Assembly: GCF_963678975.1 (NCBI RefSeq)
Contig: NC_089276.1
Span: forward strand, 28,760,472-28,824,471
DNA: 64,000 nucleotides
Source of the DNA: Dysidea avara
Taxonomy: Eukaryota; Porifera; Demospongiae; Dictyoceratida; Dysideidae
Direction: 5' to 3'
Shown here: piece by piece, positions 12,844 to 59,416 of the stretch
Layout: every line of letters starts with the position of its first letter
How positions within the stretch are numbered: position 1 is the first letter of the stretch
Position numbers and translations under genes: made by a program
Notes under the pieces: model-generated
The model's database searches: none
What the model was told of the DNA's origin: nothing
What the model saw: the letters and a program-made list of their open reading frames with translations, nothing else

Positions 12844-12926
12844 GTCACGTGATTGCGCAGGCCCTACTTGGCGCCAGAACAAAATTATTTTTGTCGGCGC
12901 TTGATTCTATATAAAAGCCACGTGAC
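12844..12926 (+). promoter_or_regulatory. Promoter of TMEM104-like A: two CACGTG boxes and TATA
   Basis: GTCACGTGAT lies at 12844-12853 and GCCACGTGAC at 12917-12926. A TATATAAAAG box lies at 12908-12917, about 57 bp before the ATG at 12974. The CACGTG contexts resemble the animal CLEAR/E-box (GTCACGTGAC) bound by MiT/TFE factors. Confidence 0.6.
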
Positions 12927-12973
12927 CACGGGTAACTTCGAAGTGTCGTTACGCGTGTGCTGTGTGGAGTACT

Positions 12974-15900
12974 ATGGATGTTTCTTGGCTAACAAAGCTG
13001 TGCAGGAAACGGCCACAAGATGGAAATAAGATACGTTCAGTTAGTGTTGTAAGCGGTTTCTTTTTTATGATCAATTTCGTGGTGGGAACAGGGTTTCTCA
13101 GCGTACCGTACGCTTTCTACAAAGCAGGAGTGATCTCTGGAGCAGTTACACTAATTGTACTATCGTTCATCAGTTGGAATACCGCCAACTGGGTCGTAGA
13201 GACCATGGCAAGAGCTCAGGTTAGCTTATTTTCTATTTGTGACCTTGCAGCCTTGTGACGTATTGTACTTTTCCTGAATCATTGTGTAACCTACTTAACT
13301 GACGAAATCATAATACCAGATACTGTCAACAATGGTAAACACTTTCTAATGTACGACTGTTGTATTTTTATGATAACTCCTGTACCTAGTAATCAGATCA
13401 TTTTTTTCTCCAAGTGTTTAGGCCAAGTCACCAGCTTCAGTAGTATACTGTAGTATGGTACTGCTCTGAATATTATTTCATGATTTGTTTTCACTGTGCA
13501 GAAATGCACAAATATACCAATTATCTGAGGAAGGAGAGTTAGCTATATGGGGGGTGGTCCAAAGCTTAATTACAGAAGGGGGAAAAGGATTATATGGGTC
13601 AATGTTAGCAAGAGCTCATATATTATGATCTCTTGATGTTTGTCTGATGTCATTGATTTGCTTGCATTGATCATGACTTTGTTCAGGGATGAGATTATTT
13701 ACTTTGTTAGCAGAATGAGAAGTAACTACACCTTAGTCAGAGCGGGCAATCAATTAAATGCTGTGATCTTGTGATGGAGAGCGTGTCGTTGAGTTGTTGA
13801 GGGTCACTTAAATATTCAAGTATTTTATGTACAGTATAACTGCATAATGACATGATACAATATGTGTGTGACAAAAGTAGTATGCAGCTCCAGCTTAATT
13901 TAAACCTCCAGTTTAGATTCCCTTACTCACTGTACCATCCACCAGTGACTATCTTACTATTACCTGAAGCCAGGGTCAAGTGATGATGGCAGCTAAAAGT
14001 ACCAATTTCAAATGCAAAGCAATACTGAAGTGCTTTCTCGATAGGTTAATTTTGTACAACTAAATTCATATTTGCTTAGCAAATAGGTCAGTGGTAGTCA
14101 TAGTAATTTTTCAAAGCAGGGAATAGCAGATCCCGTGCTCCTTTTGCCCATGTACTAGAGGATCAGGTCACTACTTGGATAGGATTACTTAGAGATTTGT
14201 TTTACCAGACCTAGACTATTACAGGTCTCTATTTGGTCACAAGGAACTCTAACCTTGACAATCAGTCATATTATTGAGATAATACCCCTGCCTTTTAATT
14301 ATACACACACACAAAGCAAAAAGTGGAAAAATAAAAGTCTTCGCTTACCATGATGTTAGATGGTCATGCCTACCCAGTGACCCAGCAGGGATACCTACTG
14401 TGTGTGCTACTCTGGTGCTAAGATTCGGTGCTGGTGGATCCTCTTGGGGCAGGACTGGTAACCCACAGGAGGTTATGCTATGTCTCACAGGTGAAGGTGT
14501 AAGCACCCAAGGTACAGTACATTGCTGCTTCCCCAGTTACAGGTATATAACATCAGGTTCCCATTTACATGGCTGGGTAGATTAGACCAATGTGAGTACA
14601 GTTCCTTGCTCAAGGAAACATTGACCATAGCAACTGGGCATAACCAGGTTTAACTTTTTACTACCAGGCCAGTACTCTAGCCACAAACATTGGTGCTTAC
14701 AAGTTTCACCTTTCTAGTATATTGTACATACAATTCTAAAATAATAGTTATATCTTAATCTTTGCTTCAGTTTGTATAAACCTACAGAGACTTATATCAT
14801 GGGTAAGCTATCCATAGTCTTCAGAGGACACCTCACAAAATTGACTTGCATTTTCATGTGTGCATTGAAATTGTAAGTTCATCGGCTTATTATTTTTATT
14901 ATCCTTTCAAGTGTTGGAAGTGAGCTCATTTCATGACAATTAACACTGTTGTCATTACTGACCTTTGTGGGTTTATACATTAGTGCTGTGACCTCATGGT
15001 TGCTATGATATTATGGCTTCTCTTTGTAGTGAAGTTATTGTAATGTAAATTAACACTGCCACTTCAAAGACCTGTTTTGGTTTATTCAACAAACCACTGC
15101 TAGGTAATGGCTTTAGAACTTCAAACAGTTACTATAGTAGTAGTGACAAGGAGATATCTAATGCACTAGAAGCTAAGTAATAGTTAGACGTCAGACCACA
15201 GGGGTCTAAGAGAGAGAACCATCATTGACAATTGTGATGAAAAGATGTACAACAAAACAAATAGGCATGTGAAACCTCAGACAGCATGCGAACACAAAAA
15301 GTAGAGGACTACACTGTGGGCATGGCAAGGCAAAACAACAACAACAAAAAAGACTAATTACTGTAATTACAAAAATAAAACTGTCTAATTTGTGCACCAC
15401 TCTTAATTTAGTAACCATGGCCCTGTGTCATGGCGCCTGATCGAAGCGAAGGCGCTACTACAGGGCCTGAGGGTTACTAAATTACTTAGACCCCTGTGGT
15501 CTGAAGTCTAACTTATTTAGACCCTTTATGTAGTTGTTGTACCTTAACATTGTTGACAGCTGCTTGTGACAGAGAAATGTAGCGTTCATTAGTAGAAACA
15601 AGCCATTACTCCACCCGTAACAGAATTAATTTTCAGGTGGCGATGCTGCGTTGCCAACGCTACCAGTCCGGGTGCGCGTAATAAACATGAAAAGGGTCTA
15701 AGTAACTTAGACACCTCCAAAATTCACCACAAAAAGGGTCTAATATAAGAGTGTTGTGGTGATCATGAAGTACAGGGACTGGTATTACTTGTTTATTAGT
15801 CAGTATTCCCTCAACTCCGATCATATTCCCTGAAATCATAAATATCAGAGTGGTAGAACAGACTAAAGTTGTACATACAGGGGGTGTACCAATACCACTT

Positions 15901-18900: not shown

Positions 18901-21900
18901 AAACCGATCCGATATGAGATTAATCATTTTGAAACCGATATGATACCGATCGGATATACCGATATAACTAAGTGTAGCTATTTATATTTGAGGAACCATG
19001 TTCAATTTCATTCTAACTACTGAAGACAGTCTTAAGATCATTGGCTATGCTTGATTATCCATGGTGGTGTGGCCTCTATTCACAGTTCAGGCTATCTATA
19101 AGGTACCACAAATATTTTAATACGTGCCCCTAGTCCAGATTACTCTGCATTTTAATGGCTCGTAGAGATGGCTGGTTGTTTTTATGCTGTGTTCTTGGTT
19201 CATTTTATTGCTGTTTCTCCAGGCTCACCACTATGAGTGTTTGTTGTATGATTGGTAAGTATTGTGACAACAAAACAGTAGTTATGGATGCACTTAGATG
19301 GCTTCATGTAGCATACTGCTTTTGCACAAGGAAAATAACTACCGTTTCCCATCCTTGTTAGCCAAATAATAGGGTGTATAATGTAGCTTGATTATTGGAC
19401 AGTGTCCTTAAGATAGTTCAGTTGTACATCAGTGTATCATATCGGTTTTTTGCAGCAATATCAGCTCCCACCAATATAGCCAAAATTTCTATATTGGCCA
19501 CCGATACGATATGTATCGGTGTATCGGTACACCTTTAATTATTATACAGTGTGATTAGGGGTCAAGAACTTGCAGAAAAAGTTCAAAACAAATATAAGAA
19601 AATTAGGAATTTTAAACAAGAGTAGGGACAATTTAGTACGGGATGGTATATTTAGCGGAAACGGCGGAATTGGCGGAAACAGCAGAATCGTAGCTTACAG
19701 ATTATGGGCAGCCTTAGAACACCCATCACCACCTAGCTGCTCACTGTTACATATATAAAAACAGCTACATAGAACTCACCACGATTAAAGCACATGGTCT
19801 ATGTATCGCTGATCTTGCAGCTTAACATTATCTGTAGCAATCAATTCTTAGAGTGTAGTCATATCTCAACCATCACACCCCATATAATATTTTGAAGCAC
19901 ATGTTACTAGAAGCGCCTTCAAGGGTGACGCTTATAATTGAAAATCTGTAAAAGCTACCTCAAGAAAATAGGGTATGGTAACTGGCTATAAGGCATTTCA
20001 AGTAGCATGCACTTTAAATTATGGTGTGTTAATTGGAATGTGATGATCAGTAAATCATTAAATTAACTGATGAGGCTCAAGATATGACTAAAGTCTAAGA
20101 ATTGATTGCCACAAATAATAGAAGACAGAAAATCAATGCTACAAAGACCATGCGCTTCAATTGTGGTAAGTTCTATGTAGCTGTTCTATACGTACATAAC
20201 AGTGAGGAACTAACTGGTAGTGGATGTTCTAAGACTGTCAATAATCTGTAAACGATGATTCTGCCGTTTCCGCCATTCCACTAAATATACCATCCCATTT
20301 AGTCCAACAATAAAAAGTACTGAAACAAGCTGGATTGGAGTAGTATGTAATATCCAATTGTTGTAAAACAATAAGAAGCAAATATCCCTACTGTGCGTTT
20401 CAATCTCCACAGCACAGCAGAGATATTTGCTTTTTACTGTTTTACAGCAATTGGACATTACATACTACTCTCATCCAGTTTTTTATCGTTGTACTAAATT
20501 GTCCTACTCTAGTTAATTTAATATTCTTATACTGGTAATAATATTGCAAAAGAAAGTTACCCTTAACCACACATAATTTTAAGGAATACGTGATTACACA
20601 AAACCATTTTAAATGGTCTGTCTAGCCAGACTAGCCTATGGTGGATGGGCATGCCATTAGGGCCGGTTCTTCTATTCTTTAAAAATAAATTTAAAAATAA
20701 AATTACCTAGAGCCATATACCAACAGAAAGCTTATTCATTAGGCTACTTGAGGAAGTCTAAATAACCACTGGAGCCAATGAGAAATGGTGATTCGATATT
20801 CCATTATTTCTCAATACTTGTGACAGCAGCTATAATAACAATTAATTAAATCACGTGAGCTATATATGGCATGACTCACTATTGAATGGGGAATCTCCTC
20901 GTGCTTATTTCACACGAATCTAATGAAGTAGGAGATGTTAACCATTTTCTAAAGGTATGTAAGGGGGTTTGCGTGCTTATTTTGCATAACAATAGTTTCA
21001 GGATGAGTTTTGGCCCCTTGCTTTCGTGCTAGGGTAAACCCCTAGGTACCATTTTAATCCTTGCTTAATTACTGTATACATAAAATGGTGTTGATTATGT
21101 AGCCATAGGAAAAATGATTTGTAACAGCCATGCGTAAATGCTGATTTATTGGCATTTACGAGTTAATAAACAAGTACAAGGAAAAATTGGGTAGTTTGTT
21201 TAGGGATCGTAAAGAAGTAGGGAAACAAATTAGCCGTACACCTGCAGACACACTAGTGGATATTTAGTCCCTAATTCAGTTCATTGTCACCTTTAAAGTA
21301 TGCCAAATAAAGGTTTCTGCAGGGTCTTATGAGGTTGCCCATACAATAAGTGTATTGTGTTCTTGTGTGTAGCATTGTGCCTGTGTGTTACCATATAGGC
21401 TTTGGAGAACTGGAAGAATAACAGACTGCACCCAAGGGAGGCTAATAACATGGGAGACAGTCCACCACTTGATAATGATCCTAAAGTTGTACGCCCAGAC
21501 TTCACAATACGGATGGACCGTAAATTTGAACTGGCTGAGCTATGCCAAATTTTTTATGGCGTTCCTATAAAATACCTGTATATGATAATCCTGTCTATTA
21601 TATTACTGATGGCATGCTGGTCATGTGCTACTGTGGCTGGAACAGCCTGGTCTACAAATATTCCCTTCAACTTTGGTTCCCTTGAGCAATGCCCTGATGG
21701 AGCCTTCAAAGGACACATCTTTCCTAATCATCCTCATGGCTGTATAGATGCATACCGATTCTGTGTCATGATATTTGCCTTGATTGTTATACCGCTCTCA
21801 CTGTTGGAGCTCACTGATCAGAAATACCTCCAAGTTTTGTTAGGGTTGATGAGATTTTTTACAGTAATCTGTATTGTGGTGTTTTGTATTGCTAAACTGA

Positions 21901-22852: not shown

Positions 22853-23277
22853 TAACTTAACTTATTTTGTATTTATATTGTGTGATACCCCTTTTTAATG
22901 ATAAAAGTATTCTAAAACTATACGTAACTTACACTAATGTGCAAGATACACATGTCTGCTTGCTATTAGTTTATACTGGTCTTGTACTCATTGCTAAAAT
23001 TACCCTTGATAGTAAAGGCCTGGTTTCAATGATCCTTTTTCCTTTGTAGAATGGAAATATAGTAAATACCATGTGTCGGACGATAACACACCCAGTGTAT
23101 CACGAACGGTTGGTATCCAGCAGAGTCTCTCTTGATTGCTCTATTAGAGTATTTCAATGCTTTTTGACTGCTCTATTAGAGCATCTCAATCGTTTTAGTC
23201 ATAGACATAGTGTAAAGGATCTATATTATAGAGGAGGGATCTGGCAACATGTAAAGAAGCTATTTGGTGTCTCTGAG
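22853..23277. other. Intergenic stretch between TMEM104-like A and sulfatase 1
   Basis: Holds the 3' flank of TMEM104-like A and two copies of TGACTGCTCTATTAGAG (about 23135-23185). The same short motif is also duplicated near 29368-29410, so it is part of a dispersed repeat. No exon seen. Confidence 0.5.
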
Positions 23278-23480
23278 GTGATGCAGTGATGACTTTATTT
23301 AGTCCTTTTTCGCTGGTCGTTGCCGCACGTGTCTACAGAAAATAAACCAAGTGCGCATGCGCTGCATGTGGTGATGCAGTGATGACTTTATTTAGTCCTT
23401 TTTCGCTGGTCGTTGCCGCACGTGTCTACAGAAAATAAACCAAGTGCGCATGCGCTCCATCTGCTGAGGTATAAAAATGG
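23278..23480 (+). promoter_or_regulatory. Sulfatase 1 promoter: duplicated 93-bp module plus TATA
   Basis: A 93-bp unit at 23278-23370 is repeated almost exactly from 23371 to about 23460; one of the first mismatches is GCTGCAT versus GCTCCAT. Each copy has a CACGTG (23326-23331 and 23419-23424). TATAAAAA follows at about 23470, roughly 70 bp before the ATG at 23539. Confidence 0.65.
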
Positions 23481-23538
23481 TCTACAAGGAGAATAGCTCA
23501 GTACAAAGTTTGGAGGAATTAAGAAGTTGCAATATACA

Positions 23539-25012
23539 ATGTCTAGATTCTGTATCACTCAGTTGGTAGTGATGCTCGGCGTCGCAGTTGTCTCAAAAGC
23601 TACTAGAGAAGATCGTCCTAATGTTATATTCGCGATGGCGGATGATCTGGGATGGGGTGACGTCCAGTATAACAATGGTAAGGCCGCCACACCCAACCTG
23701 AACAAGATGGCACGCTCCCCCCAATACCATACTCCTACAGCGATATTACAGTGGTGGTCCAGTATGTTCACCTACTAGAGGAACTGTATTAACTGGTAGG
23801 AACCATAATAGGTATTGTGTGTGGACTGCTAACGCTGGTAGAAGGTCTGGTGATTTCCTTAGACCAGCAAAGCAGCCACTCCCTCTATCAGAAATCACTG
23901 TAGCTGAAGTGATGAAACAGGCTGGTTATTCTACTGCCATGTTTGGTAAATGGCATTTAGGAGACTTTAAAAAACTTGACGGTAGCAATAAAAAGTGGCC
24001 AATATCTCATCCTGGACAACATGGGTTTGACAAATGGTGGGCCACTGAGAGATCAGCTCCAACTTCTTCTCCTAACTGTGGATGTTTCCTACTTTCTGAA
24101 TGTGTACAAGGACACTATGGTAAACATCCAGCATGCATCAACTACCATACTAACAAAACGGACACCATTAAATCATGGAAATATCCTATCACTGGAGATG
24201 ACTCTAATTTTATTTGGCACCTGGCTAAGAGATACATTACAAAACGGGCTAAGTCTAAACAGCCATTTTTTCTCTACCTTCCTTTCCACACTGTACACAT
24301 TCCTTACATTGCTACACATGAAAACAGAGAAATGTACCTAAAACAAAACTACACTAAAGATCAAGCAGATTACTATGGAGCCATCACTGCTTTAGATGAA
24401 GTCATTGGAAAGCTACGAAGCATGTTGAAAAAGTTGGGAATTAAAAACAACACTCTTCTCTGGTTTACTAGTGACAACGGACCAGCACGTAAAACTCCAG
24501 GTGACACTAATGGTCTACGGGGACATAAACAGTTATTATATGAAGGAGGAGTACGTGTTCCAGGAATGATAGAGTGGCCAGATGTGATCAGTAGTAACAA
24601 AGTGTCATGGTTCCCAGTAATATCTAGTGATCTACTACCAACTGTTCGTGATATACTGGGTGTTAAGCCTAGTGATGATCGTCCAATAGATGGTATTTCT
24701 ATACTTCCATTTCTACAAGGGAAAATAGACCACAGAAACCAGTCTATGTATTGGGGCTTCAATATCAGGGGCAATTTTAGTAGTGAATACAGCATGTCTA
24801 CCAGTGGAGACCAGTATAAACTGGTAGGTACCTATAAGAATGGCAGGGTGGTTCATTATGAATTGTATGACTTATTGAATGATCTTGGGGAGACTACAGA
24901 CTTAAAGGATAAGTTCCCCACCATCAGTAATGAACTACTAAACCAAACTGAAGAGTGGAGGAAGTCTGTGATGGAAAGTGTTGATAAAGTTGGATGTCTT
25001 GGAAGAGCATAG
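23539..25012 (+). CDS. Sulfatase 1 (type I, formylglycine), with one-base frameshift
   Basis: Type I sulfatases hydrolyse sulfate esters with a Cys-derived formylglycine and a bound calcium ion. Single exon. It starts MSRFCITQLVV (hydrophobic signal peptide), followed by RPNVIFAMADDLGWGDV (metal-binding Asp pair). A run of six C at 23717-23722, where the other copies have five, shifts the frame by +1. The downstream frame continues without further damage to the TAG at 25010: active-site CSPTR, GKWHLGD, HTVHIP, TSDNGP. Corrected length is about 490 aa. The single lesion in a homopolymer and the otherwise intact body suggest a recent mutation or an assembly error rather than an old pseudogene. 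The C-terminus (GCLGRA) is shorter than in the other copies. An AATAAA lies at 25180-25185. Confidence 0.8.
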
Positions 25013-33600: not shown

Positions 33601-35059
33601 AGGTTGGATGGATAGTCTGTCTATGCTGTTAGTCTGGAAAGGATCTGAGACTTCTCACCATTTGGGTGAAGAGCGTCAAAATGTTCGGTCGTCATTCCAC
33701 GGGATTCTCTCAATAGTGCCAAAGTCCTTTTTTCAGTACTTCTCATGGCACACTGGTCACCTAATTTTGTTTAGAATGATGATAAATGATGGTCCAAAAA
33801 GTTTGGTAGTGTTTCTGTGATTTCATATGATGTAGTATACCAGCAGCTCACCAGGAGCTCCACCCAGCTTGAATCGAAAATGAAAAATTTGTGCTTTTTC
33901 AGTTTGTTTTGAGATATTTTGCAATATAAAGGTGATATAGGGTGATCTAGTAAAGATTTGAAGCTGCTGTGGAACGTGAAAGGTGAAGTCAAATTTGGAT
34001 GATTCAGCTGCCTGCTGTGGTGCATCGCTTACTTAGAGTGAGGTGTGAAAGCTATGGATGAAATAATAATTGGCAACCGCTGCTACCAGATGTCCAGGGA
34101 CATCTTTTACCATAGATTTAGTCAATAAGCAATGGCTGCAGAAGCACTGGAAATAGCTAGAAAGCGCAATACAATTCTTTAATGCTGCAGAAATTTTTGA
34201 CACTCGTCACCCAGATGGTGAGAAGTCTCAGATCTTTTCCAAACTAACAGCATAGACAGACTATGCACCCAACCGTATCAAAACACTATGAGGAAAAGTT
34301 GGCTTTTCTTGGTAGGGCAGTTTGAAATCGAAAATTCGTATTTCTTTGTCTGTTTATCCAAAGAAAGCAACCCTGTGCTGGTCACCCAGCAAATCATTTA
34401 CTTATTACTTTTTAACTACAACAACTCTGGATATGATCTGGCTAAGTAGTAAGTTTCATCCGGTCCTTTGTGTGGAGCACGAAATTTAAAAAATAAATTT
34501 TGCATCTCGTGACATACTAAAAATGATATTTCTGTGAAGACAATAATCGTGCCTCCGGCTTCATGGTGGATCTAGCAATGGGATACTACAATGAACATCC
34601 CACAATCATAGTAGGGAGATCGATTTGCAAAAGTTGATTTTTCGGATTGCAGACCCTACCCCAGGAAAATAAAGATTTAGTGAATTGAAACGTCTTTTGT
34701 ATATACAACACACAGATCATGGCAATGCATGTCAGTATATAGTCCAGCACACTCGAGGTCACACTCACACTGCATGATGTCTCAATTAACTGATGTATTG
34801 ACATTAAACTAACCTGAGCTCTTGCCATGGTCTCCACAATATAGTTGGCGGTATTCCAACTGATGAACGATAGTACAATAAGAGTAACTGCTCCAGAGAT
34901 CACTCCTGCTTTGTAGAAAGCATACGGTACGCTGAGAAACCCTGTGCCCACCACGAAATTGATCATGAAAAAGAAACCGCTTACTACGCTAACCGAGCGT
35001 ACCTTATCCCCATTTTGTGCTTGTCTCCTGCACAGCTTTGTTAGACAAGAAAAATCCAT
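30632..35059 (-). CDS. TMEM104: TMEM104-like amino-acid-transporter-family protein B
   Basis: Minus-strand exons 35059-34814, 32090-31293 and 31240-30632 have exactly the same lengths (246, 798, 609 nt) and phases as gene A, and the protein is again 550 aa. The start is set at MDFSCLTKLCRR by alignment with gene A (MDVSWLTKLCRK). Exons 2 and 3 are nearly identical to those of A in protein, for example the hydrophilic tail with QQQPLLLRQAIREDTKRHPW. About 10-11 membrane helices; a proton- or sodium-coupled amino-acid carrier is the family expectation, substrate unknown. Intron 1 (2.7 kb) contains the foldback element 33200-34660. Its 3' end faces the sulfatase relic at 30140-30435. Confidence 0.85.
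33200..34660. mobile_element. Long-arm foldback transposon in TMEM104-like B intron 1
   Basis: The arms at 33200-33715 and 34190-34660 are inverted copies of about 500 bp around a spacer of about 470 bp. Matches include AAAAATCAACTTTT near the ends, GGATGTTCATTGTAGTATCC versus GGATACTACAATGAACATCC, and GAGACTTCTCACC versus GGTGAGAAGTCTC. Left and right arms differ at scattered positions, so the insertion is not very recent. No transposase frame. Confidence 0.85.
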
Positions 35060-35103: not shown

Positions 35104-35109
35104 CACGTG
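35104..35109 (-). promoter_or_regulatory. CACGTG box upstream of TMEM104-like B
   Basis: On the plus strand the context is TGTCACGTGGCTTTT, 45 bp upstream of the ATG at 35059. Confidence 0.5.
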
Positions 35110-38330: not shown

Positions 38331-38337
38331 GCGGTGT

Positions 38338-38343
38338 CACGTG
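38338..38343 (+). promoter_or_regulatory. CACGTG box upstream of sulfatase 2
   Basis: The context GTGTCACGTGAAAC is 146 bp before the ATG at 38484. A TTATATAGAG element lies at about 38439-38448. Confidence 0.5.
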
Positions 38344-38483: not shown

Positions 38484-39977
38484 ATGGCGAAAGTGTTTAG
38501 ACTCCTCCTGTGTGTACTGTTGTTGATCGTCTCAGAAGCTACTGGAGAAGATCGTCCTAATATTATATTCGCAATGGCGGATGATCTAGGATGGGGTGAC
38601 GTCCAGTATAACAATGGTAAAGCTGCCACACCCAACCTGAACGAGATGGCACACTCCCCCAACACCATACTCCTACAGCGATATTACAGTGGTGGTCCAG
38701 TGTGTTCACCTACTAGAGGAACTGTATTAACAGGTAGGAACCATAATAGGTATTGTGTGTGGAGTGCTAACGCTGGTGGAAACACTGCTGATTTTGTTAG
38801 ACCTGAAACAATGCCTCTCCCTCTATCAGAGATCACTGTAGCAGAAGTGATGAGACAGGCTGGTTATTCAACTGCCATGTTTGGTAAATGGCATTTAGGA
38901 GACTTTAAAAAACTTGAAAAGGGAAATGAAAAGTGGCCAATATCTCATCCAGGGATGCACGGGTTTGACGAGTGGTGGTCTACTGAAAGATCTGCTGGAT
39001 CATGTACCATTAATTGTGGGTGTTTCTCTATTGCTACTTGTGTAAATGGCCACTACAAGGAACCTCCAACATGTACCAATTACTACACTTATACCAACAA
39101 CTCTGGGGACTTGGAGGAATGGCCGGATGCTATTCCTGGAGATGACACTCATTTTCTCTTTACACTTGCAGAGAAGTACATTAGGGAACAGGCTAAGTCG
39201 CAAAAGCCATTCTTCCTCTATCTACCTTTCCACACAGTTCATATCCGTTACATTGCAACAGATGAAATGAGAGAGAAGTACCTCAAACAAAATTATACTG
39301 AGGAGCAAGCAGATTATTTTGGAGCCATAACTGCAATGGATGAAGTCATTGGAGAACTGCGTAGTCTGCTAAAAGAGTTGCGTATTAAAGATAACACTTT
39401 ATTTTGGTTTGCTAGTGATAATGGAGCACTGCACAATAGCCCAGGTAGTGTAAATGGTTTACGAGGATACAAGACTTTATTGTACGAAGGAGGAGTCCGT
39501 GTTCCAGGAATGATAGAGTGGCCAGATGTGATCAGTAGTAACAAAGTGTCATGGTTCCCAGTAATATCTAGTGATCTACTACCAACTGTTCGTGATATAC
39601 TGGGTGTTAAGCCTAGTGATGATCGTCCAATAGATGGTATTTCTATACTTCCATTTCTGCAAGGGAAAATGGACCACAGAAATCATTCCATATATTGGGG
39701 CTATGACATCCATGGTAACTTTAATGGCAAATACAATATGTCTACCAGTGGGGACCAGTATAAGCTGATGGCTACTTATGAGAATGGTAAAGTACTTCGT
39801 CATTATCTTTATGACTTGTTGAATGATCTTGGGGAGACTACAGACTTAAAGGATAAGCTTCCTACTATAGCCAATAAACTACTAAACCAAATTGAAGAGT
39901 GGAGGAAGTCTGTGATGGAAAGTGTTGATAAAGTTGGATGTCTTGGAACTGGTGACATTTCATATTTTAATAATTAG
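38484..39977 (+). CDS. Sulfatase 2 (type I, formylglycine)
   Basis: Intronless, 497 aa. A signal peptide (MAKVFRLLLCVLLLIVSEAT) predicts secretion or lysosomal targeting. Domain features: DDLGWGD with metal Asp33/34; active-site CSPTR with Cys74, to be converted to formylglycine; GKWHLGD Lys135/His137; a Cys-rich insertion at about 174-197 (C-x3-C-x-C-x5-C-x10-C); HTVH His253; DNG Asp312/Asn313. All catalytic residues are present. Overall closest in style to the arylsulfatase A/GALNS branch, judged by motif order; the substrate cannot be told from sequence. The start at 38484 is preferred because it begins the hydrophobic signal directly. The N-terminal and 3' blocks are almost identical in DNA to sulfatases 1, 3 and 4. 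Confidence 0.92.
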   Translation: MAKVFRLLLCVLLLIVSEATGEDRPNIIFAMADDLGWGDVQYNNGKAATPNLNEMAHSPNTILLQRYYSGGPVCSPTRGTVLTGRNHNRYCVWSANAGGNTADFVRPETMPLPLSEITVAEVMRQAGYSTAMFGKWHLGDFKKLEKGNEKWPISHPGMHGFDEWWSTERSAGSCTINCGCFSIATCVNGHYKEPPTCTNYYTYTNNSGDLEEWPDAIPGDDTHFLFTLAEKYIREQAKSQKPFFLYLPFHTVHIRYIATDEMREKYLKQNYTEEQADYFGAITAMDEVIGELRSLLKELRIKDNTLFWFASDNGALHNSPGSVNGLRGYKTLLYEGGVRVPGMIEWPDVISSNKVSWFPVISSDLLPTVRDILGVKPSDDRPIDGISILPFLQGKMDHRNHSIYWGYDIHGNFNGKYNMSTSGDQYKLMATYENGKVLRHYLYDLLNDLGETTDLKDKLPTIANKLLNQIEEWRKSVMESVDKVGCLGTGDISYFNN

Positions 39978-45188: not shown

Positions 45189-45198
45189 GTCATGTGAC
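45189..45198 (+). promoter_or_regulatory. GTCATGTGAC E-box upstream of sulfatase 3
   Basis: One base from the GTCACGTGAC CLEAR consensus (CATGTG core), about 80 bp before the ATG at 45277. Confidence 0.45.
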
Positions 45199-45276: not shown

Positions 45277-46797
45277 ATGCAGTTTATAGAAAGGACTTGT
45301 ATACTAGCACTTTGTGTACTTCCGGTTGTGCTCTCCAACTCGGACATTGCTGTTGAAAGTCGTCCTAATGTTATCTTCGCAATGGCGGATGATCTAGGAT
45401 GGGGTGACGTCCAGTATAACAATGGTAAAGCTGCCACACCCAACCTGAACGAGATGGCACACTCCCCCAATACCATACTCCTACAGCGATATTACAGTGG
45501 TGGTCCAGTATGTTCACCTACTAGAGGGACTGTGTTAACAGGTAGGAACCATAATAGGTATTGTGTGTGGGGTGCAAACACTGGTCAACAAACACGAGAC
45601 TTCAAAATTCCTGAAACAATGCCCCTCCCTTTATCAGAAATCACTGTAGCAGAAGTAATGAGAGATGCTGGCTATTCAACTGCATTCTATGGTAAATGGC
45701 ATTTGGGAGACTTCAAAAAACTTGATGGTGGCAATAAAAAGTGGCCAATATCTCATCCCGGACAACATGGGTTTGACAAATGGTGGGCCACTGAGAGATC
45801 AGCTTCAACTTGCACCCTCAATTGTGGATGCTTCCCACACTCTAAATGTGTACTAGGACACTATGGTAAACGTCCAGCATGCATCAACTACCACTCCAAC
45901 AAGACAGCTGACACCATTACATCATGGAATGATCCTATTACTGGAGATGACTCTCATTATATTTGGTACTTGGCCAAAGGATTTATTACAAAGCAGGCAG
46001 AATCCAAAACACCATTTTTCCTCTACCTTCCTTTCCATACTGTTCACATTCCTTACATAGCAACAGATGAAAACAGAGAGAAATACCTGAAACAAAACTA
46101 TACTAAAGATCAAGCAGATTATTATGGAGCCATCACTGCTTTAGATGAGGTTATTGGAGAGCTGCGTAGTCTGTTGAAAGAGTTAGGAATTAGGAATAAC
46201 ACTCTAGTATGGATTGGTAGTGACAATGGGCCAGAACGCAACACTCCAGGTGAGACCAATGGGCTAAGAGGTCGTAAACGCATGTTGTATGAAGGAGGAG
46301 TCCGTGTTCCAGGAATGATAGAGTGGCCAGATGTGATCAGTAGTAACAAAGTGTCATGGTTTCCAGTAATATCTAGTGATCTACTACCAACTGTTCGCGA
46401 TATACTGGGTATTAAGCCTAGTGATGATCGTCCAATAGATGGTATTTCTATACTTCCATTTCTGCAAGGGAAAATGAATCACAGAAACCAGTCCATATAT
46501 TGGGGCTTTAATATCAAGGGTAATTTCAGTAATGAATACAATATATCTACCAGTGGAGACCAGTATAAATTGATGGCTACTTATCAGAATGGTACCGTAC
46601 TTCATTATGAGTTGTATGACTTGTTGAATGATCTTGGGGAGACTACAGACTTGAAGGATAAGCTTCCTACCATCAGTAATGAACTACTAAACCAAATTGA
46701 AGAATGGAGGAAGTCCGTGATGGAAAGTGTTGATAAAGTTGGATGTCTTGGAACTGGTGATACTCTTCTCAAACAAGTGGCTACTTTTTCTACATAA
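45277..46797 (+). CDS. Sulfatase 3 (type I, formylglycine)
   Basis: Intronless, 506 aa, starting MQFIERTCILALCVLPVVLS (signal peptide). Catalytic landmarks are intact: DDLGWGD, CSPTR with Cys79, GKWHLGD, HTVHIP, GSDNGP. The Cys-rich insertion reads CTLNCGCFPHSKCVLGH in the middle of the protein. The last 200 codons are very close to sulfatase 4, including the longer C-terminus (GDTLLKQVATFST). AATAAA lies at 46849-46854. Downstream and on the opposite strand lies the TMEM104-like relic at 48234-48447. It is part of a duplicated block with 52048-55085. Substrate unknown. Confidence 0.93.
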   Translation: MQFIERTCILALCVLPVVLSNSDIAVESRPNVIFAMADDLGWGDVQYNNGKAATPNLNEMAHSPNTILLQRYYSGGPVCSPTRGTVLTGRNHNRYCVWGANTGQQTRDFKIPETMPLPLSEITVAEVMRDAGYSTAFYGKWHLGDFKKLDGGNKKWPISHPGQHGFDKWWATERSASTCTLNCGCFPHSKCVLGHYGKRPACINYHSNKTADTITSWNDPITGDDSHYIWYLAKGFITKQAESKTPFFLYLPFHTVHIPYIATDENREKYLKQNYTKDQADYYGAITALDEVIGELRSLLKELGIRNNTLVWIGSDNGPERNTPGETNGLRGRKRMLYEGGVRVPGMIEWPDVISSNKVSWFPVISSDLLPTVRDILGIKPSDDRPIDGISILPFLQGKMNHRNQSIYWGFNIKGNFSNEYNISTSGDQYKLMATYQNGTVLHYELYDLLNDLGETTDLKDKLPTISNELLNQIEEWRKSVMESVDKVGCLGTGDTLLKQVATFST

Positions 46798-48233: not shown

Positions 48234-48447
48234 TTACTGGGATACAGTCAGACTGGTGATGACCAGACCACAACTGATCAAGGTGATTATAGCAAATACT
48301 ACTACAATGATTGGATGACTGAACACTGTAGAGTATGGTGTGTAGTAAGTGTCCTCCTTCCATCCTAAACCACTGCTCTTTACCTTCCTACTAGAAATCA
48401 ATAGAGGTAGCTCTTCATTAACTGGCAAACGATGAGTTGGTAATAAA
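48234..48447 (-). pseudogene. TMEM104-like relic, end of last exon only
   Basis: On the minus strand about 70 codons (PTHRLPVNEELPLLISS to the terminal TSLTVSQ) equal the C-terminus of TMEM104-like C. Homology stops abruptly at about 48447, and no upstream exon follows. Confidence 0.9.
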
Positions 48448-48449
48448 AT

Positions 48450-51134: not shown

Positions 51135-51860
51135 TTTATTTTTTTTTTTTTTTTTATTTTAACTGCTTTTTAATGCAGGCAAGGCCTGCATTAATGGTCT
51201 GTGGGCAACTGGTGTCCACAGCCAGAAAAAGTATACGTACAACTTACAATTACAATTGAATGTATAAAATTACAATCAAATTAAGTTAGCTGGCTAAGGT
51301 TATTACATACATTTACATTTGGTATATAGTTGAACTATCCTATAATTTTAAAACTTACATGTGTATTTAATAATAAACTTACTTATATAGCTAAGTACTT
51401 ATTTTAAGAGAGAGCAAGAAGAAGAAGAAGAAGAAAAAAAAAAAGATTAATTACTGCTGAAGTTTGGTGGGCGAGGAGACTTGGAGCAGGTACTACAAGG
51501 GCAAACAAAGTGCATACTGTGGGGATTGTCAGAGTTAAAATTGTTTATAAAATGCTGCCAGAAGGTCTTGAGTAACTGTGATTTAATGGTGGGAAAAGGT
51601 TGATTTAAGTCAAGTACTGGTAGACTGTTGTAGGTTCTTGGTAATCTGTTAAAGTAGAAGTTACTTTGTTTGTTGGTTGATGTGAAATTGTGTTGAAGCT
51701 TGTTACTGGTGGAGGATCTGGTAGGATTGCGGCAAAAGTTGACATAGTTACTGATATTGAAATGATTAGATGGATGCTGGATTGATTTTACGAAGAAGAG
51801 TATGTCATAAAGATCATAGGTGTACATCAGTGGTAGTATGTTAAGTTTGATAAGACGTGT
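51135..51860 (-). mobile_element. 5'-truncated non-LTR retrotransposon (LINE) 3' end
   Basis: A minus-strand frame (51827-51447, 126 codons) looks like the extreme C-terminus of a LINE reverse transcriptase polyprotein: LFFVKSIQHPS, NYVNFCRNPTRSST, NFYFNRLPRTYNSLPVL, then a Cys-containing tail. On that strand a 3' UTR follows and ends in a poly(A) tract (plus-strand T-run about 51138-51157). The classic layout is a 5'-truncated insertion. CR1/L2-like by pattern; the clade is uncertain. Confidence 0.75.
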
Positions 51861-52026: not shown

Positions 52027-52032
52027 CACGTG
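52027..52032 (+). promoter_or_regulatory. CACGTG box just upstream of sulfatase 4
   Basis: The context GATCACGTGACTC is 21 bp before the ATG at 52048, so it may lie in the 5' UTR. Confidence 0.5.
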
Positions 52033-52047
52033 ACTCGCAGAAAGAAA

Positions 52048-53547
52048 ATGATATCGCAGTGGATAGTTTTTCTTTCGCTGTGTACAACCTCAGCAATTGC
52101 TTTGGAAAATCATCCTAACGTTATATTCGCAATGGCGGATGATCTAGGATGGGGTGACGTCCAGTATAACAATGGTAAAGCTGCCACACCCAACCTGAAC
52201 GAGATGGCACACTCCCCCAACACCATACTCCTACAGCGATATTACAGTGGCGGTCCAGTGTGTTCACCTACTAGAGGAACTGTATTAACAGGTAGGAACC
52301 ATAATAGGTATTGTGTGTGGACTGCTAACGCTGGTGGATACACTCCTGACTTTGCTAAACCAGAGACAATGCCCCTCCCCCTCTCAGAAATTACTACAGC
52401 TGAAGTGATGAGACAGGCTGGTTATTCAACTGCCATGTTTGGTAAATGGCATTTAGGAGACTTTAAAAAGCTTGACGGTGGCAATAAAAAGTGGCCAATA
52501 TCTCATCCCGGACAACATGGGTTTGATAAATGGTGGGCCACTGAGAGATCAGCTCCAACTTGTTCTCTCAATTGTGGATGTTTCCCACATGCAGAATGTG
52601 TATTGGGCCATTACAAAGAGCGTCCATCATGTACTAACTACCATACCAACAAGACAGCTCACACCATTAAATCATGGAATGATCCTATCACTGGAGATGA
52701 CTCTCATTTCATGTGGTATGTTGCTCAGGACTATATCACAAAACAGGCAAAAGCTAAGCAACCATTCTTTCTCTACCTACCCTTCCACACTGTTCACATT
52801 CCTTACATTGCAACAGATCAAAACAGAGAAATGTACCTCAAACAAAACTTTACTGAAGGCCAAGCAGATTACTTTGGAGCTATTACTGCTTTAGATGAAG
52901 TCCTTGGAGAATTACGAGGTCTGTTAAAAGAGTTGGGAATAAGGAATAACACCCTTCTCTGGTTTGCTAGTGATAATGGTCCTGAGGTTAACACTCCAGG
53001 TGTGACTAATGGATTGCGAGGGCATAAACACTTGTTATATGAAGGAGGAGTCCGTGTTCCAGGAATGATAGAGTGGCCAGATGTGATCAGTAGTAACAAA
53101 GTATCATGGTTCCCAGTAATATCTAGTGATCTACTACCAACTGTTCGTGATATACTTAGTGTTAAGCCTAGTGATGATCGTCCAATAGATGGTATTTCTA
53201 TACTTCCATTTTTACAAGGGAAAATAGACCACAGAAACCAATCCATGTATTGGGGTTTTAATATCAATGGAAATTTCAGTAATGAATACAATATATCTAC
53301 CAGTGGAGACCAGTATAAATTGATGGCTACTTATCAGAATGGCACTGTACATCGTTATGAGTTGTATGACTTGTTGAATGATCTTGGGGAGACTACAGAC
53401 TTGAAGGATAAGCTTCCTAGCATCGGTAATGAACTACTAAACCAAATTGAAGAATGGAGGAAGTCCGTGATGGAAAGTGTTGATAAAGTTGGATGTCTTG
53501 GAACTGGTGATACTCTTCTCAAACAAGTGGCTACTTTTTCTACATAA
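52048..53547 (+). CDS. Sulfatase 4 (type I, formylglycine)
   Basis: Intronless, 499 aa from the ATG at 52048 (MISQWIVFLSLCTTSAIA, a signal peptide). The same frame is open upstream to 51937, but that extension would bury the signal peptide, so I did not use it. Motifs: DDLGWGD, CSPTR with Cys72, GKWHLGD, HTVHIP, SDNGPE, and the Cys-rich insertion CSLNCGCFPHAECVLGH. Complete catalytic set. The 3' half and flank match sulfatase 3. AATAAA lies at 53599-53604. It converges on TMEM104-like C. A truncated LINE lies just upstream. Confidence 0.93.
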   Translation: MISQWIVFLSLCTTSAIALENHPNVIFAMADDLGWGDVQYNNGKAATPNLNEMAHSPNTILLQRYYSGGPVCSPTRGTVLTGRNHNRYCVWTANAGGYTPDFAKPETMPLPLSEITTAEVMRQAGYSTAMFGKWHLGDFKKLDGGNKKWPISHPGQHGFDKWWATERSAPTCSLNCGCFPHAECVLGHYKERPSCTNYHTNKTAHTIKSWNDPITGDDSHFMWYVAQDYITKQAKAKQPFFLYLPFHTVHIPYIATDQNREMYLKQNFTEGQADYFGAITALDEVLGELRGLLKELGIRNNTLLWFASDNGPEVNTPGVTNGLRGHKHLLYEGGVRVPGMIEWPDVISSNKVSWFPVISSDLLPTVRDILSVKPSDDRPIDGISILPFLQGKIDHRNQSMYWGFNINGNFSNEYNISTSGDQYKLMATYQNGTVHRYELYDLLNDLGETTDLKDKLPSIGNELLNQIEEWRKSVMESVDKVGCLGTGDTLLKQVATFST

Positions 53548-53614
53548 ATATTATACCAGTAGTCAACTAATGATACCATTGTTATACATTATAATAGTAA
53601 TAAAAAGGATTGCA

Positions 53615-53856: not shown

Positions 53857-54872
53857 TATTGCTATATGTATATGTACGTAGCTACTAATTCTCTGTTGAT
53901 AATATAGTCACTGAATCAGACACTGATATGACTCAACAATGTTGTGACTGCCATGTACAGTACTGCAAAATTGTGTATACAATTATAATTGCACAAAGTC
54001 TTTAATAATTTTTGACATGTGTCTAAAGTACTTATGGTGCTGCAAATTCTTTTACAATGGTATGTGTATTGTCTGCACCTCTCAAATTTTTTCACAAGAT
54101 GAAGCAACAACTGTTATATTAAACAATTAAACGTAGCAGCTAGGTGTGTTAAAACTTCTCTTTAGTGTTTACTGTCTCACTGATCCATTTAGATTCTCAA
54201 CACTTTTGCTGCTACAATTCATGAATAGCCATAACAATTATACATTGTAGTCATGTGTTTATATTGCATACTTAGCCTTGTATTTCGCACTTTCTTGGCT
54301 TCAAAACTTGATAGCTGCCACAATTTTACAGCATCTTTGGTGTGCAATATTGAAGGAAGTGCATGACACAGTACTTCAAGCAGTCATATTATATCATAGT
54401 ATTGTATGTATGTGTGCATATATACTGTATAAGCTGAGGATTTTAGTGTACTATATATTAGAGCTAGCTAGGAGCTAATTTAGATAAAGATACCTAAACA
54501 ACCTATTATAATTAAGATAACAATTTTATTTATCGAGATAATAGTAAATTTCCATAATTTATTGTATACCAACCACACTCAGATGGAAAGCCTGTGGAAG
54601 TGTTGAATTAGTTGGGGCCCGGCGTTGATAAAATTACTAACTTAATTGAGTACTACATGATGTCAAGTCAATGTAAACTGCATACTAAACATTACTCTAT
54701 TATCAAGATAATATCAATTATTGAGATAAAACGGTTGTCACTTATTGAGATATAGATTTTATTATTATCACACAGCCCTGTTTACTATATACAAGTAAAT
54801 GGTACTCACACAGTTATAATGCATATGCATGTGTACATATAAAAAAATAAGAATAGTTTGTGTCTTTTATGC

Positions 54873-57800
54873 TTACTGGGATACAGTCAGACTGGTGATG
54901 ACCAGACCACAACTGATCAAGGTGATTATAGCAAATACTACTACAATGATTGGATGACTGAACACTGTAGAGTATGGTGTGTAGTAAGTGTCCTCCTTCC
55001 ATCCTAAACCACTGCTCTTTACCTTCCTACTAGAAATCAATAGAGGTAACTCTTCATTAACTGGCAAACGATGAGTTGGTACTAAAGCAGTCCCAAATGT
55101 CTTGTGACAAACATATTGTGATCGTAGCTGGAGTGCTATTGGGAAGAAGTAACAAATGAACAGTCCAAGAAGGCCAGCATATTTGACAATAAAAACAAGG
55201 TTGGCAATAAAGAGGGACCCTATGATTGGTATAACAGTGTACACAAGTCGTATTGCTATCAACATCACTTTCCCATATTTGTGCTTGTGAAGTTGTGTAC
55301 TGTCAGAACCAGTAAACAACATGAAGAGATTGTTACTAACAGTGAACACACCCAAGGGGTAAGCAGAACACACATCCAGCGATGGGAAGAAAACAATGTA
55401 GTAAGCCATAACACGGAGTGCTGTGGAAGAACTGTGGTGAGCTATTTCAACCTGTAATACAATAAAGATTTTTTATCACCATTAAATTGAGTACAACTAT
55501 ACCAGTACATGCAGTAGATAGCTTACCTGAAGTTGTACAGTATACCACATGTTATTACATTGCATGCACAAAAATTCTAAGCAGTATAATTGTAAAACCA
55601 GCTTCTCCTGAAGCTACTAAAATTTTAATTCCTGAGGTAATTAGGATGTGAAATAATCACCCCTCAAGAGTTTAATCTGAACACATTAACACCTGCAAAA
55701 GTTATCAGAGTTTGTAACATAAGTTATTAGAGATGCATGCTGTTATCACGCTCATAGTTATCACATCATGGACGGCTCCAGTATATTGTGAGAAGTACAC
55801 TAACATGCCAAACATGTCAAGCATTCCTTAGGGGGGGTTGGGAGCATGGTTCTCCCAGGGAAATTTTTGAAATTCAAATTCTTTGAGATTGGATGTGAGA
55901 GCATATTAAGCAAGTAAATTATTAAATACTATTATATTAAAATGTTTGACTGTTGTATCTTGGGCTGTTGCTTGACTGTTGTTCTATTAGGATATCTTGA
56001 TCAGCTTGACCAGTTCCAGAAACTCCTCTGGAGCTGCACAGTATAGTGTGCATGACTGGAGCACAGCCCAAGTACAACAAAACATCATTTTGCAACTCAC
56101 AAAGTTTAGTGTTGCTGTCTCCTGGATGCTACTCTTAAACCATAGTGACATAGTTACTCCGAGGGACAAGTACAGCACTGTGGTTGAGATAAACACAGCA
56201 CCAAAAAATACTTTCATCCATTCCTTTGCCTTGATGGGTTGAGTCATTGATGGTATCCCTTGATGCAGAATTTGTGCATACACAAATATGGGAATAACTA
56301 ATACCCATCTTGTGAAGTCAAATTTCAGTATCTGATGGCCATAACTGTGGTAGGAACTGTTAAAAGTAGTAGTTGTATTGTAAGGATTGTATTGTGGTTG
56401 TGACACAAGATTAACAACAGAATAAATAATTAAACATCCAAATGTGAAGAACCTCATCAAACCTAACAAAACTTGTAGGAATTTCTGTTCAGTCAACTCC
56501 ACCAGTGATAGTGGTATTACTATCAGAGCAAACAACATGATACAGAAACGATAAGCTCCTAAACATCCTCCACTTGGAATAAGATTATTGTGAAACTCCT
56601 CTTCATCACATTGTGACAGTGAACCAAAGTTCAGAGGTAAATTTGATGCCCATGCAGAGCCAGCCACAGTACAGCCAGCCCATGTACCACTAAACATATA
56701 CAGACAGAAAACCACTAGGTAGGCATATTTCATGTACCGACCAAAGAAAATTTCTGACATTTCACTTTGTTCAAACTTTCGAGTCAGCAGTAGATGAAAT
56801 TTTGGCTTCTTTCTGATAGCACTGTCAGTACTGTTGCCATTAGACTTAATGCTAGCACTTCCATCTTGCTTTTTGATGCTTTCTTGCCAATCAATGATTG
56901 CCTGATGATAGATAACAGTGATTGTATAATTTGCATATCTACCTTACTGTGTAATCTGGTGCAGTTGATATTTCACTACAAATGAATCAAATAGGAACAT
57001 TTGGCTGGAGACAACTTTGGTGAATTTGGCAAATGACCAGTGTTTTGCCAAACTAAAACTGTTACAAATTATCTAATAGCTAACAAATTCGCCAAACCTT
57101 TTCTCAACAAAATCCTATTGCAGTAAATTATTTGTCAAAGTTTCTTTCCACCAAACTTTCCTGCTATACAGTACTACATAATGTACATTCAATTTGATTG
57201 AACTCAATATTGGCTGATATACATGAATCGAAAATGTTTATTCTTGGCTTAATACAATGTTGTACCAACAGCTATAATGAATGACACACCAACATATCAC
57301 ATGCATGGCTACAAGTTTCTGTAATTTATTGCTGTAGCTATTTGAGGCTCTTAAGATATGTATACAATCCAATATTTTCCACTTACACACACACAACACG
57401 TGTGTGTATGCACGCCATGCTACACATACACATACACATACTTATACAGTCCATTTCAGGTTACGTTGCTTGCAAATACAATTGAACAATTCACACACAT
57501 GATTTTCAAACGTGATCAAGTGAATGCTTACGTGCAGTGCTTTAATGTGTTGAATAACTACCTCAGTATGCCCCTGGCATTGCCTAATGATCTAAGAAGG
57601 CAAATAATGTTGTGTTATTAAAAGGAGCTTGGTTGAAAGGAAACAGCTCACGTGTTCGAGCATTCACGTTTGTGTGAATGTCCAATTGCATTCTCAAGCA
57701 ACCTGAAATTGACTATAATAAATTGTACACTGGTAGGCATCCCAGTATCCAAGATATTTTAATAAAAAAATTCTTCATAATATTCCCAATAAGAACCCTG

Positions 57801-59345
57801 GCACAATAATAACAACATACGTTTAACTTAGGATTGCTCTGTCATCTGAGCTCCAATGGGGATGAAAATCACTATGGGGTTTGTCCATATGCTAATCATC
57901 ATGGAAGTCTTAGCTTTATCATGCGTGTTATGTTTTGTGTTTTCTTGTACTCTTTTAAATGCTCCAATGGTAATGTGTACAGAGTACTTTGAAACTTTAA
58001 AAATGTACAGTTAGATGGAAGGTATTCACTGATGCTTACTTTAAAGTGCTTATAGTTACTTTGCTCAGCTAGGTACAATTTTCTGATGGCTGTGTCACTA
58101 ACTCAAAATGATTATAAACCACTTCAAAGTCAGCATAACAATGCCACAATTGAAACCACAACCCCATCTTAGGGTATTGTAGCATCATTGTAACACCTCC
58201 ACGTTGTTTACCTTACTTGAGATAGCCACTTGGTTATGGGTATACACCATTGTATTGAGAAGCGTGTGCAGTAGGTGAAACATATTTGCTCACCACAAAG
58301 CATACAAAGATCACTGAGATCCTATAAACCCTAAAGTTACCCTCATTATTACATGTATAAACTTGCAGCTAGAAGCAACTGCAGTTTCAAGACAGTCAAG
58401 GTTGCCAGATGGCTTTTAAATTCATCATTTGTGCCATTTTTCCTTTAAAATGTATGGGGAGCTCCAGAGAAAAAATGTACCTTATTTCAGTTTTAAAACA
58501 CTGTGCATGACAAAGTAGCTATTCCCAACCCAACAAACTATATATTTCTGTGATCGGCAATCATACTCTATCTATTGAGCAAATAAAAACTCCAGAATTT
58601 TAAAACAATTGGGCTGGAATGTCAAACACTAGTATTAAAACACAGTCAGGTGATGGCTAATTGTTAAATAAATAGATATGGAGCTATAATGTGAACACAT
58701 TTGAAATTCTATGCTCAATGCTTTGTATTATATTTGCTGCTGGTGTGTCAAACATAAGCCAAAGGGGCACAGGCACTGAAAGTTTTACACAAAAGGCACA
58801 AGCTCATGGTACTCATAGCTTGCTGGGTTTCTTGCGTGTGTGATAGCCGGTTTTCTATGTGACTGAGTCGATATGGGCCATCTTGCATCAGTAAGTTTTT
58901 ATTGCACAGATACAACCGGCTATAGTTAGCTGTATGGGTGCAAATGTACGCAATGTAGGGAAGGGTACTGTAATCTGAGGCGTAGCTAAATATGCATATT
59001 ATAGCTACGGCATGCATGAAGATACGCAGAGTGGGAGGGGCTGCATCTATATAATATACTGAAGTGCGTGCCGGTGCATCATACCTAACTCACCTGCGAT
59101 CTAGACATTGTCTCAACAATCCAGTTGGCGGAGTTCCAACTAATAAACGAAAGCACCAACAGCGTGATGCTAGCAGTGAGGGCGCCTGCACGATAGAATG
59201 CATACGGGACACTCAGAAACCCTGTTCCAACGATGTAGTTGATATTAAAGAAAAATCCGCTGATGAGACCTACAGATTTCGGTTCCTTAGTTTGGTCCGT
59301 TCTATCCTTCTTGCTACCAGATATCCAGGTGGTCACGCGGTTCAT
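54873..59345 (-). CDS. TMEM104: TMEM104-like amino-acid-transporter-family protein C
   Basis: Minus-strand exons 59345-59094, 56901-56101 and 55451-54873, all phase 0, give 543 aa. The same exon plan as A and B, but the protein is clearly diverged. The first exon keeps NYIVGTGFLSVPYAFYRAG and LSFISWNSANWIVETMSRSQ. Exon 2 keeps LTEQKFLQVLLGLMRFF and IPSMTQPIKAKEW, and exon 3 the FPIALQLRSQYVC helix. About 10-11 membrane segments. The C-terminal loop has lost the Gln-rich segment of A and B. Intron 2 is 649 nt, versus about 50 nt in A and B. Probably the older member; the relic at 48234-48447 was copied from this one. Substrate unknown. Confidence 0.85.
56902..59093 (-). other. Intron 1 of TMEM104-like C
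   Basis: About 2.2 kb, AT-rich, with inverted TTTGGCAAA/TTTGCCAAA-type repeats near 57010-57100 and CA-rich patches near 57385-57440. No nested gene recognised. Confidence 0.5.
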
Positions 59346-59410
59346 CGCTCTTCGCCCAACAGATGAATTTTAATTACCAGCTTTATGACGTAATAATATG
59401 TAACGGAAAG

Positions 59411-59416
59411 CACGTG
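59411..59416 (-). promoter_or_regulatory. CACGTG box upstream of TMEM104-like C
   Basis: Read on the minus strand the context is TTGTCACGTGCTTT, 66 bp before the ATG at 59345. Confidence 0.5.

What the first reader, a model, noticed from the sequence alone, without database searches (positions are those of the whole stretch)
12844..59416. A CACGTG (CLEAR-like) box in every sulfatase and TMEM104-like promoter
Seen directly: E-boxes at 12846 and 12919 (TMEM104-like A), 23326 and 23419 (sulfatase 1), 35104 (TMEM104-like B), 38338 (sulfatase 2), 45191 (sulfatase 3, CATGTG), 52027 (sulfatase 4) and 59411 (TMEM104-like C), each 20-215 bp from the ATG. Most contexts are GTCACGTGA-like. CACGTG also occurs about a dozen times elsewhere in the window, but hitting all seven short promoters is far above what that background predicts. 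In vertebrates GTCACGTGAC is the CLEAR element by which MiT/TFE factors control lysosomal genes, including sulfatases. This suggests that an old lysosomal regulon controls both unrelated gene families here.
Basis: partly seen in the sequence, partly recalled or inferred. Interest (0 to 1): 0.75.

Follow-up and report, generated by a model that had tools for sequence, protein, structure and literature searches.

The report
Common promoter E-box, not lysosomal switch
The short DNA word CACGTG really does sit just in front of nearly every sulfatase and TMEM104-like gene here, but in the same genome it also sits in front of many unrelated genes, so it looks like a common gene-start element with at most a small extra bias towards sulfatases.

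Summary
The boxes are real and far above chance: CACGTG lies within 213 bp of the ATG in 6 of 7 claimed genes; the seventh has TCATGTGA. It is the best of 2,080 six-mers and survives shuffles that keep local CpG. Two counts shrink: 23326/23419 are one site in a 93-bp tandem repeat, and the proximal boxes of TMEM104-like A and B are homologous. The lysosomal reading mostly fails its own test. A box counted as background (6903) lies 29 bp before a PKA gene. In the window's 551-Mb genome CACGTG lies within 250 bp of the ATG in 17 of 31 other sulfatases, 7 of 15 V-ATPase/cathepsin genes and 12 of 31 non-lysosomal controls (1.6 expected). In CpG-rich promoters: 14/24, 6/11, 12/23. So the core is a general promoter E-box, as reported for a sponge. 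One residue remains: GTCACGTG within 150 bp is in 5 of 7 window genes and 11 of 31 other sulfatases, but 1 of 15 other lysosomal genes and 0 of 31 controls. A MITF-like factor exists. Paralogy, few controls and missing start-site data limit this.

The parts
6903..6908 (.).
6932..6965 (+). first exon of PKA catalytic subunit ([11 protein letters not shown]; end of exon is my splice guess)
   Evidence: joined with the next two exons it matches PKA C-alpha residues 1-80, E 8e-21
12846..12851 (.). CACGTG (GTCACGTGAT), -128 of TMEM104-like A
12919..12924 (.). CACGTG (GCCACGTGAC), -55 of TMEM104-like A, just after a TATA-like word; homologous to 35104
12974..13219 (+). TMEM104-like A exon 1 (end by splice-site eye)
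   Evidence: Aa_trans in its large exon 21399-22286
23277..23467 (+). 93-bp tandem repeat, 2.1 copies, that makes the two sulfatase 1 boxes
23326..23331 (.). CACGTG (CGCACGTGTC), -213 of sulfatase 1
23419..23424 (.). CACGTG (CGCACGTGTC), -120 of sulfatase 1; duplicate of 23326
23539..25012 (+). sulfatase 1; reading frame broken by one extra C in the run 23717-23722
35104..35109 (.). CACGTG (sense strand GCCACGTGAC), -50 of TMEM104-like B
34814..35059 (-). TMEM104-like B exon 1 (end by splice-site eye)
38338..38343 (.). CACGTG (GTCACGTGAA), -146 of sulfatase 2
38484..39977 (+). sulfatase 2 (single open frame, signal-peptide-like start, CSPTR motif)
45191..45196 (.). CATGTG (GTCATGTGAC), -86 of sulfatase 3; no CACGTG within 1 kb
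45277..46797 (+). sulfatase 3
52027..52032 (.). CACGTG (ATCACGTGAC), -21 of sulfatase 4
52048..53547 (+). sulfatase 4
59411..59416 (.). CACGTG (sense strand GTCACGTGCT), -71 of TMEM104-like C
59094..59345 (-). TMEM104-like C exon 1 (end by splice-site eye); Aa_trans match
62729..62818 (-). first exon of a diverged PKA-like gene; no CACGTG between it and the window end (control)

Best explanation
The boxes are instances of a general promoter E-box of this genome. They are (T)CACGTG sites in CpG-rich start regions, bound by a group-B bHLH-leucine-zipper protein of the USF/MiT-TFE kind that helps open or activate the promoter whatever the gene does. Shown: the sites, their enrichment over chance, their presence in about half of the CpG-rich promoters examined for lysosomal and non-lysosomal genes alike, and a homologous box in two TMEM104-like copies whose surroundings have diverged. 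Inferred: that they are bound, by which protein, and that they act at the start site. On top of this, sulfatases and TMEM104-like genes favour the GT-flanked form GTCACGTG close to the ATG, perhaps through inheritance among paralogs or a stronger demand for a MiT/TFE- or USF-type factor.
For: CACGTG within 250 bp in 12 of 31 non-lysosomal starts (one or more members of the PKA, cyclophilin, enolase, HSP90, 14-3-3, ARF, RAB and CDK1 families; 1.56 expected from shuffles), 7 of 15 V-ATPase/cathepsin starts (0.72 expected) and 17 of 31 other sulfatases (1.83 expected). It is joint second among 604 CpG-bearing six-mers in the first 28 controls and first in the V-ATPase/cathepsin set. In CpG-rich promoters the rates are 12/23, 6/11 and 14/24. 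Control boxes are of the same T/A-flanked class (11 of the 12 positive controls hold TCACGTG on one strand). The PKA box is in the window itself. Section 5 and passages of PMC4773876 report a G-box-like E-box enriched around start sites in the sponge Amphimedon; passages of PMC1779564 report TCACGTGR and CACGTG peaking at human start sites.
Against: GTCACGTG within 150 bp is 11/31 in other sulfatases and 5/7 in the window set but 0/31 in controls (p 0.0003 for the other sulfatases). CACGTG within 100 bp is 14/31 against 5/31 (p 0.026), within 150 bp 16/31 against 7/31 (p 0.034). So the families are not wholly alike. Controls are few, belong to 13 families (three UBE2 copies share a similar upstream reading), and were picked by me for conserved N-termini recalled from memory. 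Distances are to ATGs, not start sites.
Confidence: 0.62

Rival explanations
1. CLEAR-type regulon: the MITF/TFEB homologue binds GTCACGTG boxes and raises sulfatases, TMEM104-like transporters and other lysosomal genes together.
For: GTCACGTG octamer enriched in sulfatases and TMEM104-like genes (16/38 within 150 bp against 0/31 controls), including far-diverged sulfatases (25-39% identity in the matched part) on other contigs with the octamer 14-55 bp before the ATG. A MITF-like bHLH is encoded at G000:C4:42889683-42889992, with no USF match at E 1e-3.
Against: V-ATPase and cathepsin genes do not share the octamer (1/15 within 150 bp) and have the core no more often than controls (7/15 against 12/31, p 0.75). 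No window box is the full 10-mer. TMEM104 function is called elusive in the passages read (PMC9333335).
Confidence: 0.2
2. Inheritance only: the boxes in sulfatases and in TMEM104-like copies descend from one ancestral promoter per family and are kept as part of a general promoter; their co-occurrence in one window is tandem duplication.
For: TMEM104-like A and B share AAAAGCCACGTGAC. Six distant sulfatases share GTCACGTG 14-21 bp before the ATG, five of them as GTCACGTGTT. The sulfatase 1 pair is a tandem repeat.
Against: 5' ends of the four window sulfatases showed no alignable stretch above shuffles although their bodies are 82-88% identical; 31 sulfatase promoters fall into 29 mutually unalignable groups, 15 with a box. 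Loss is expected without selection.
Confidence: 0.12
3. Myc/Max ribosome-biogenesis E-boxes (the E(CG) regulon described for holozoans, PMC2570694, passages read).
For: Same core; Max-like bHLH matches exist.
Against: The genes are not ribosome-biogenesis genes; a T flank is disfavoured by Myc/Max (recalled) and prevails here. Ribosome-biogenesis promoters were not tested.
Confidence: 0.04
4. Chance plus CpG retention in unmethylated promoters.
For: These promoters keep CpG (o/e 0.97 against 0.38 in the window).
Against: Shuffles that keep each promoter's dinucleotides give 0.24-0.36 promoters with a box where 6 are seen.
Confidence: 0.02

Closest known systems
G-box-like E-box of Amphimedon queenslandica core promoters (PMC4773876; section 5 and passages read)
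   Same: CACGTG-type E-box around start sites of genes at large, beside NRF-1 sites and raised CpG at start sites
USF-type TCACGTGR core-promoter motif of human genes (PMC1779564; passages read)
   Same: T/A-flanked CACGTG near gene starts of many functions
   Different: No start-site map here; my query matched no USF homologue in this genome at E 1e-3
CLEAR element / TFEB network of vertebrates (definition from the finding and from recall; only listings seen)
   Same: CACGTG with GT flanks close to sulfatase starts; MITF-like gene present
   Different: No full 10-mer among the window boxes; V-ATPase and cathepsin genes not enriched over controls

Membership tests
CLEAR element | 10-bp palindrome GTCACGTGAC or close to it | tested here: inconclusive
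   0 of 8 CACGTG boxes is complete; 6 of 8 hold the GTCACGTG half
CLEAR element | within about 200 bp of the transcription start | tested here: inconclusive
   21-213 bp from ATGs; no start sites known
CLEAR regulon | enriched in lysosomal genes over other genes | tested here: not met
   core: 7/15 V-ATPase/cathepsin against 12/31 controls within 250 bp; octamer: 1/15 against 0/31 within 150 bp. Sulfatases alone differ for the octamer (11/31)
CLEAR regulon | MiT/TFE factor encoded | tested here: met
   MITF-like bHLH in two adjacent pieces at G000:C4:42889683-42889992, 83% over 23 aa and 52% over 52 aa to the recalled MITF segment, E 7e-4 and 4e-7; no tree was made
CLEAR regulon | binding and induction by MiT/TFE | not testable with these tools
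   needs DAP-seq, CUT&RUN or expression data
General promoter E-box (USF/G-box type) | enriched near starts of genes of many functions | tested here: met
   12/31 controls, in 8 of 13 families, 1.56 expected
General promoter E-box (USF/G-box type) | tied to CpG-rich start regions | tested here: met
   controls with CpG o/e >= 0.6: 12/23; below: 0/8
General promoter E-box (USF/G-box type) | fixed position relative to the start site | not testable with these tools
   no start-site map
Myc/Max E(CG) ribosome-biogenesis regulon | present in ribosome-biogenesis promoters | not tested
   such genes were not searched

The most novel reading that the evidence does not exclude
Beneath the general E-box, a flank-coded subset (GTCACGTG within about 150 bp) marks sulfatases and TMEM104-like transporters as one MITF/TFE-driven sulfate-sugar breakdown module that predates, or split from, the vertebrate-style lysosome-wide CLEAR network, with V-ATPase and cathepsin genes outside it.
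Probability: 0.18. Interest if true: 0.6.

Novelty: new member of a known kind. Interest (0 to 1): 0.27.

Why it matters
It shows how a striking local motif pattern can be a general promoter feature seen through one gene cluster, and leaves a small testable residue: whether the bases flanking CACGTG sort sulfatase and TMEM104-like genes from the rest. If they do, that would bear on when the MITF/TFEB control of degradative enzymes arose in animals.

Tried and rejected
Chance and CpG retention: rejected by shuffles. Recent bacterial origin of the sulfatases: a scan of bacterial and archaeal genomes with two peptide patterns found 5 relatives at 26-30% identity, so no recent transfer was seen. 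Relatives in viral contigs: none for sulfatase 2 or one TMEM104-like exon. Extra in-window genes as controls: 10 chosen ORFs had no Pfam match. Copies of the TMEM104-like genes elsewhere in the genome were never searched: the query did not complete three times. Dropped rows: 9 tubulin alpha loci and V-ATPase c, because the ATG is not in the fetched exon; 5 of 20 loci of the second control batch, because no trustworthy ATG lay in the fetched exon (L107, L108, L109, L111, L113); 7 of 38 fetched sulfatases, because by eye no signal peptide precedes the domain in that exon (none of the 7 has a box; with them the count is 17 of 38). Of the 73 sulfatase match rows, 38 gene starts outside the window were fetched; a broken copy near C5:28933904-28935655 and several fragments or far matches were not.
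Full report
WHAT WAS CHECKED. The window (37.5% GC, CpG o/e 0.38) lies at G000:C5:28760472-28824471 of a 551-Mb genome in 108 contigs.

STRENGTH OF THE OBSERVATION. CACGTG lies within 150 bp of the ATG in 6 of 7 genes. At the window's own CACGTG rate the binomial chance is 4.6e-8, and no other of 2,080 six-mer classes has a lower p. Rates from promoter-wise dinucleotide shuffles imply about 3e-9 for six or more of seven. The sites are not all independent. The sulfatase 1 pair is one site in a 93-bp tandem repeat, and TMEM104-like A and B share a block ending in AAAAGCCACGTGAC, the only pair of the seven promoters with an alignment above shuffles over 600 bp. The four sulfatase 5' ends therefore show no such relation, although the bodies are 82-88% identical in DNA.

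FIRST SIGN AGAINST A LYSOSOMAL REGULON. Reading 6780-7740 showed an exon [11 protein letters not shown] starting at 6932. Joined by my splice guess with the next two exons, it matches PKA catalytic subunit alpha residues 1-80 (E 8e-21). A second, diverged PKA-like start at 62818 (minus) has none.

GENOME-WIDE TEST, SULFATASES. A search with sulfatase 4 gave 73 matches; I read the starts of 38 genes outside the window. Seven were set aside because by eye no signal peptide lies in the same exon (5 of the 7 with CpG o/e below 0.3); none has a box. Of the other 31, 17 have CACGTG within 250 bp (1.7 expected by shuffling; 3 of 31 in the stretch -600 to -350 of the same genes), in 15 of 29 groups of mutually unalignable promoters. 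Eleven hold GTCACGTG on one strand, 14-55 bp before the ATG, in genes 25-39% identical to sulfatase 4 in the matched part.

GENOME-WIDE TEST, OTHER GENES. With recalled N-termini I located starts of V-ATPase subunits and cathepsin L-like genes (16 fetched, 15 usable) and of non-lysosomal genes (43 fetched, of which 29 usable, plus the two PKA starts of the window = 31). CACGTG within 250 bp: window set 6/7, other sulfatases 17/31, other lysosomal 7/15, controls 12/31, with 1.56 expected for the controls. Against controls p is 0.31 for sulfatases, 0.75 for the other lysosomal genes and 0.17 for all lysosomal-type genes together. Among starts with CpG o/e of 0.6 or more the rates are 5/5, 14/24, 6/11 and 12/23. 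So the core box is a general element of CpG-rich promoters here. The 12 positive controls come from 8 of 13 families.

WHAT IS LEFT. Some contrasts do separate the families. CACGTG within 100 bp: sulfatases 14/31, controls 5/31 (p 0.026); within 150 bp 16/31 against 7/31 (p 0.034). Control boxes are mostly of the ATCACGTG form on one strand. The full palindrome TCACGTGA is no more common in sulfatases than in controls (4/31 against 6/28 within 250 bp). Because sulfatases are one family, the number of independent events is smaller than the counts; yet TMEM104-like genes are a separate family and show the octamer in all three window copies. Several distance thresholds were tried, and no correction was made for that.

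MECHANISM. Most likely a group-B bHLH-zipper protein binds the T/A-flanked CACGTG close to the start site of many genes and supports transcription (binding inferred, not shown). A MITF-like bHLH is encoded at G000:C4:42889683-42889992 and two Max-like matches exist; USF gave no match at E 1e-3, which is weak evidence of absence. A table passage of PMC5064789 lists one MITF, one USF, one SREBP, two Myc and one Max gene in Amphimedon. A T flank disfavours Myc/Max (recalled).

COMPARISON WITH WHAT IS KNOWN. [quoted passage not shown] sulfatase 1 here has the NRF-1-like word GCGCATGCGC twice (seen; motif recalled). Passages of PMC1779564 report the USF consensus TCACGTGR and CACGTG peaking at human start sites. 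Passages of PMC2570694 describe the Myc E(CG) ribosome-biogenesis regulon. In eight literature searches I recognised no paper that claims a CLEAR network in sponges; the lists were capped, and for most papers I saw only the listing and the start of the abstract. In passages of PMC9333335, TMEM104 function is called elusive, so its lysosomal role is not established here.

LIMITS. Distances are to ATGs chosen by rule and eye, not to mapped start sites. Controls were chosen for recognisable N-termini and are few. TMEM104-like copies elsewhere were not searched.

Noticed in passing
window 23717-23722: Sulfatase 1 has six Cs where its paralog has five, which breaks the frame before the active-site motif; the rest is open and looks constrained (dN 0.09-0.15, dS 0.44-0.55 against the other three), so a sequencing slip or a very young break.
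   Followed up: partly
window 23590-25004, 38529-39955, 45346-46760, 52096-53510: Sulfatase bodies are mosaics: identity per 150-nt window runs from 59 to 99%, as gene conversion would give, while signal peptides and promoters look unrelated.
   Followed up: partly
window 47507-48447 and 54145-55086: A 98.4% identical copy of the 3' end of TMEM104-like C lies behind sulfatase 3, much closer than the neighbouring 87.6% identical sulfatase block.
   Followed up: no
window 6932-12680 and 60312-63695 (on to about 65530 outside the window): PKA-type kinase genes flank the cluster; by my reading the minus-strand copy starting at 62818 has a degenerate glycine loop and may be a pseudokinase.
   Followed up: partly
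window 23353-23362 and 23446-23455: NRF-1-like word GCGCATGCGC twice in the sulfatase 1 tandem repeat (motif recalled).
   Followed up: no
G000, many contigs (L030-L067): Large expansion of sulfatase genes, many with long open frames as if intronless: 38 further gene starts read outside the window, among 73 matches.
   Followed up: partly
G000:C4:46374732-46983841 and C11:18379925-18763728: Clusters of UBE2D-like and of Hsp70-like genes.
   Followed up: no
G000:C1:14385043-14389922: GTCACGTGAC recurs seven times at 810-812-bp spacing, probably a tandem array carrying the full palindrome.
   Followed up: no
window 51447-51860: An open frame (minus) just upstream of sulfatase 4 reads like the end of a retrotransposon reverse transcriptase (recalled resemblance; no Pfam match).
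   Followed up: partly
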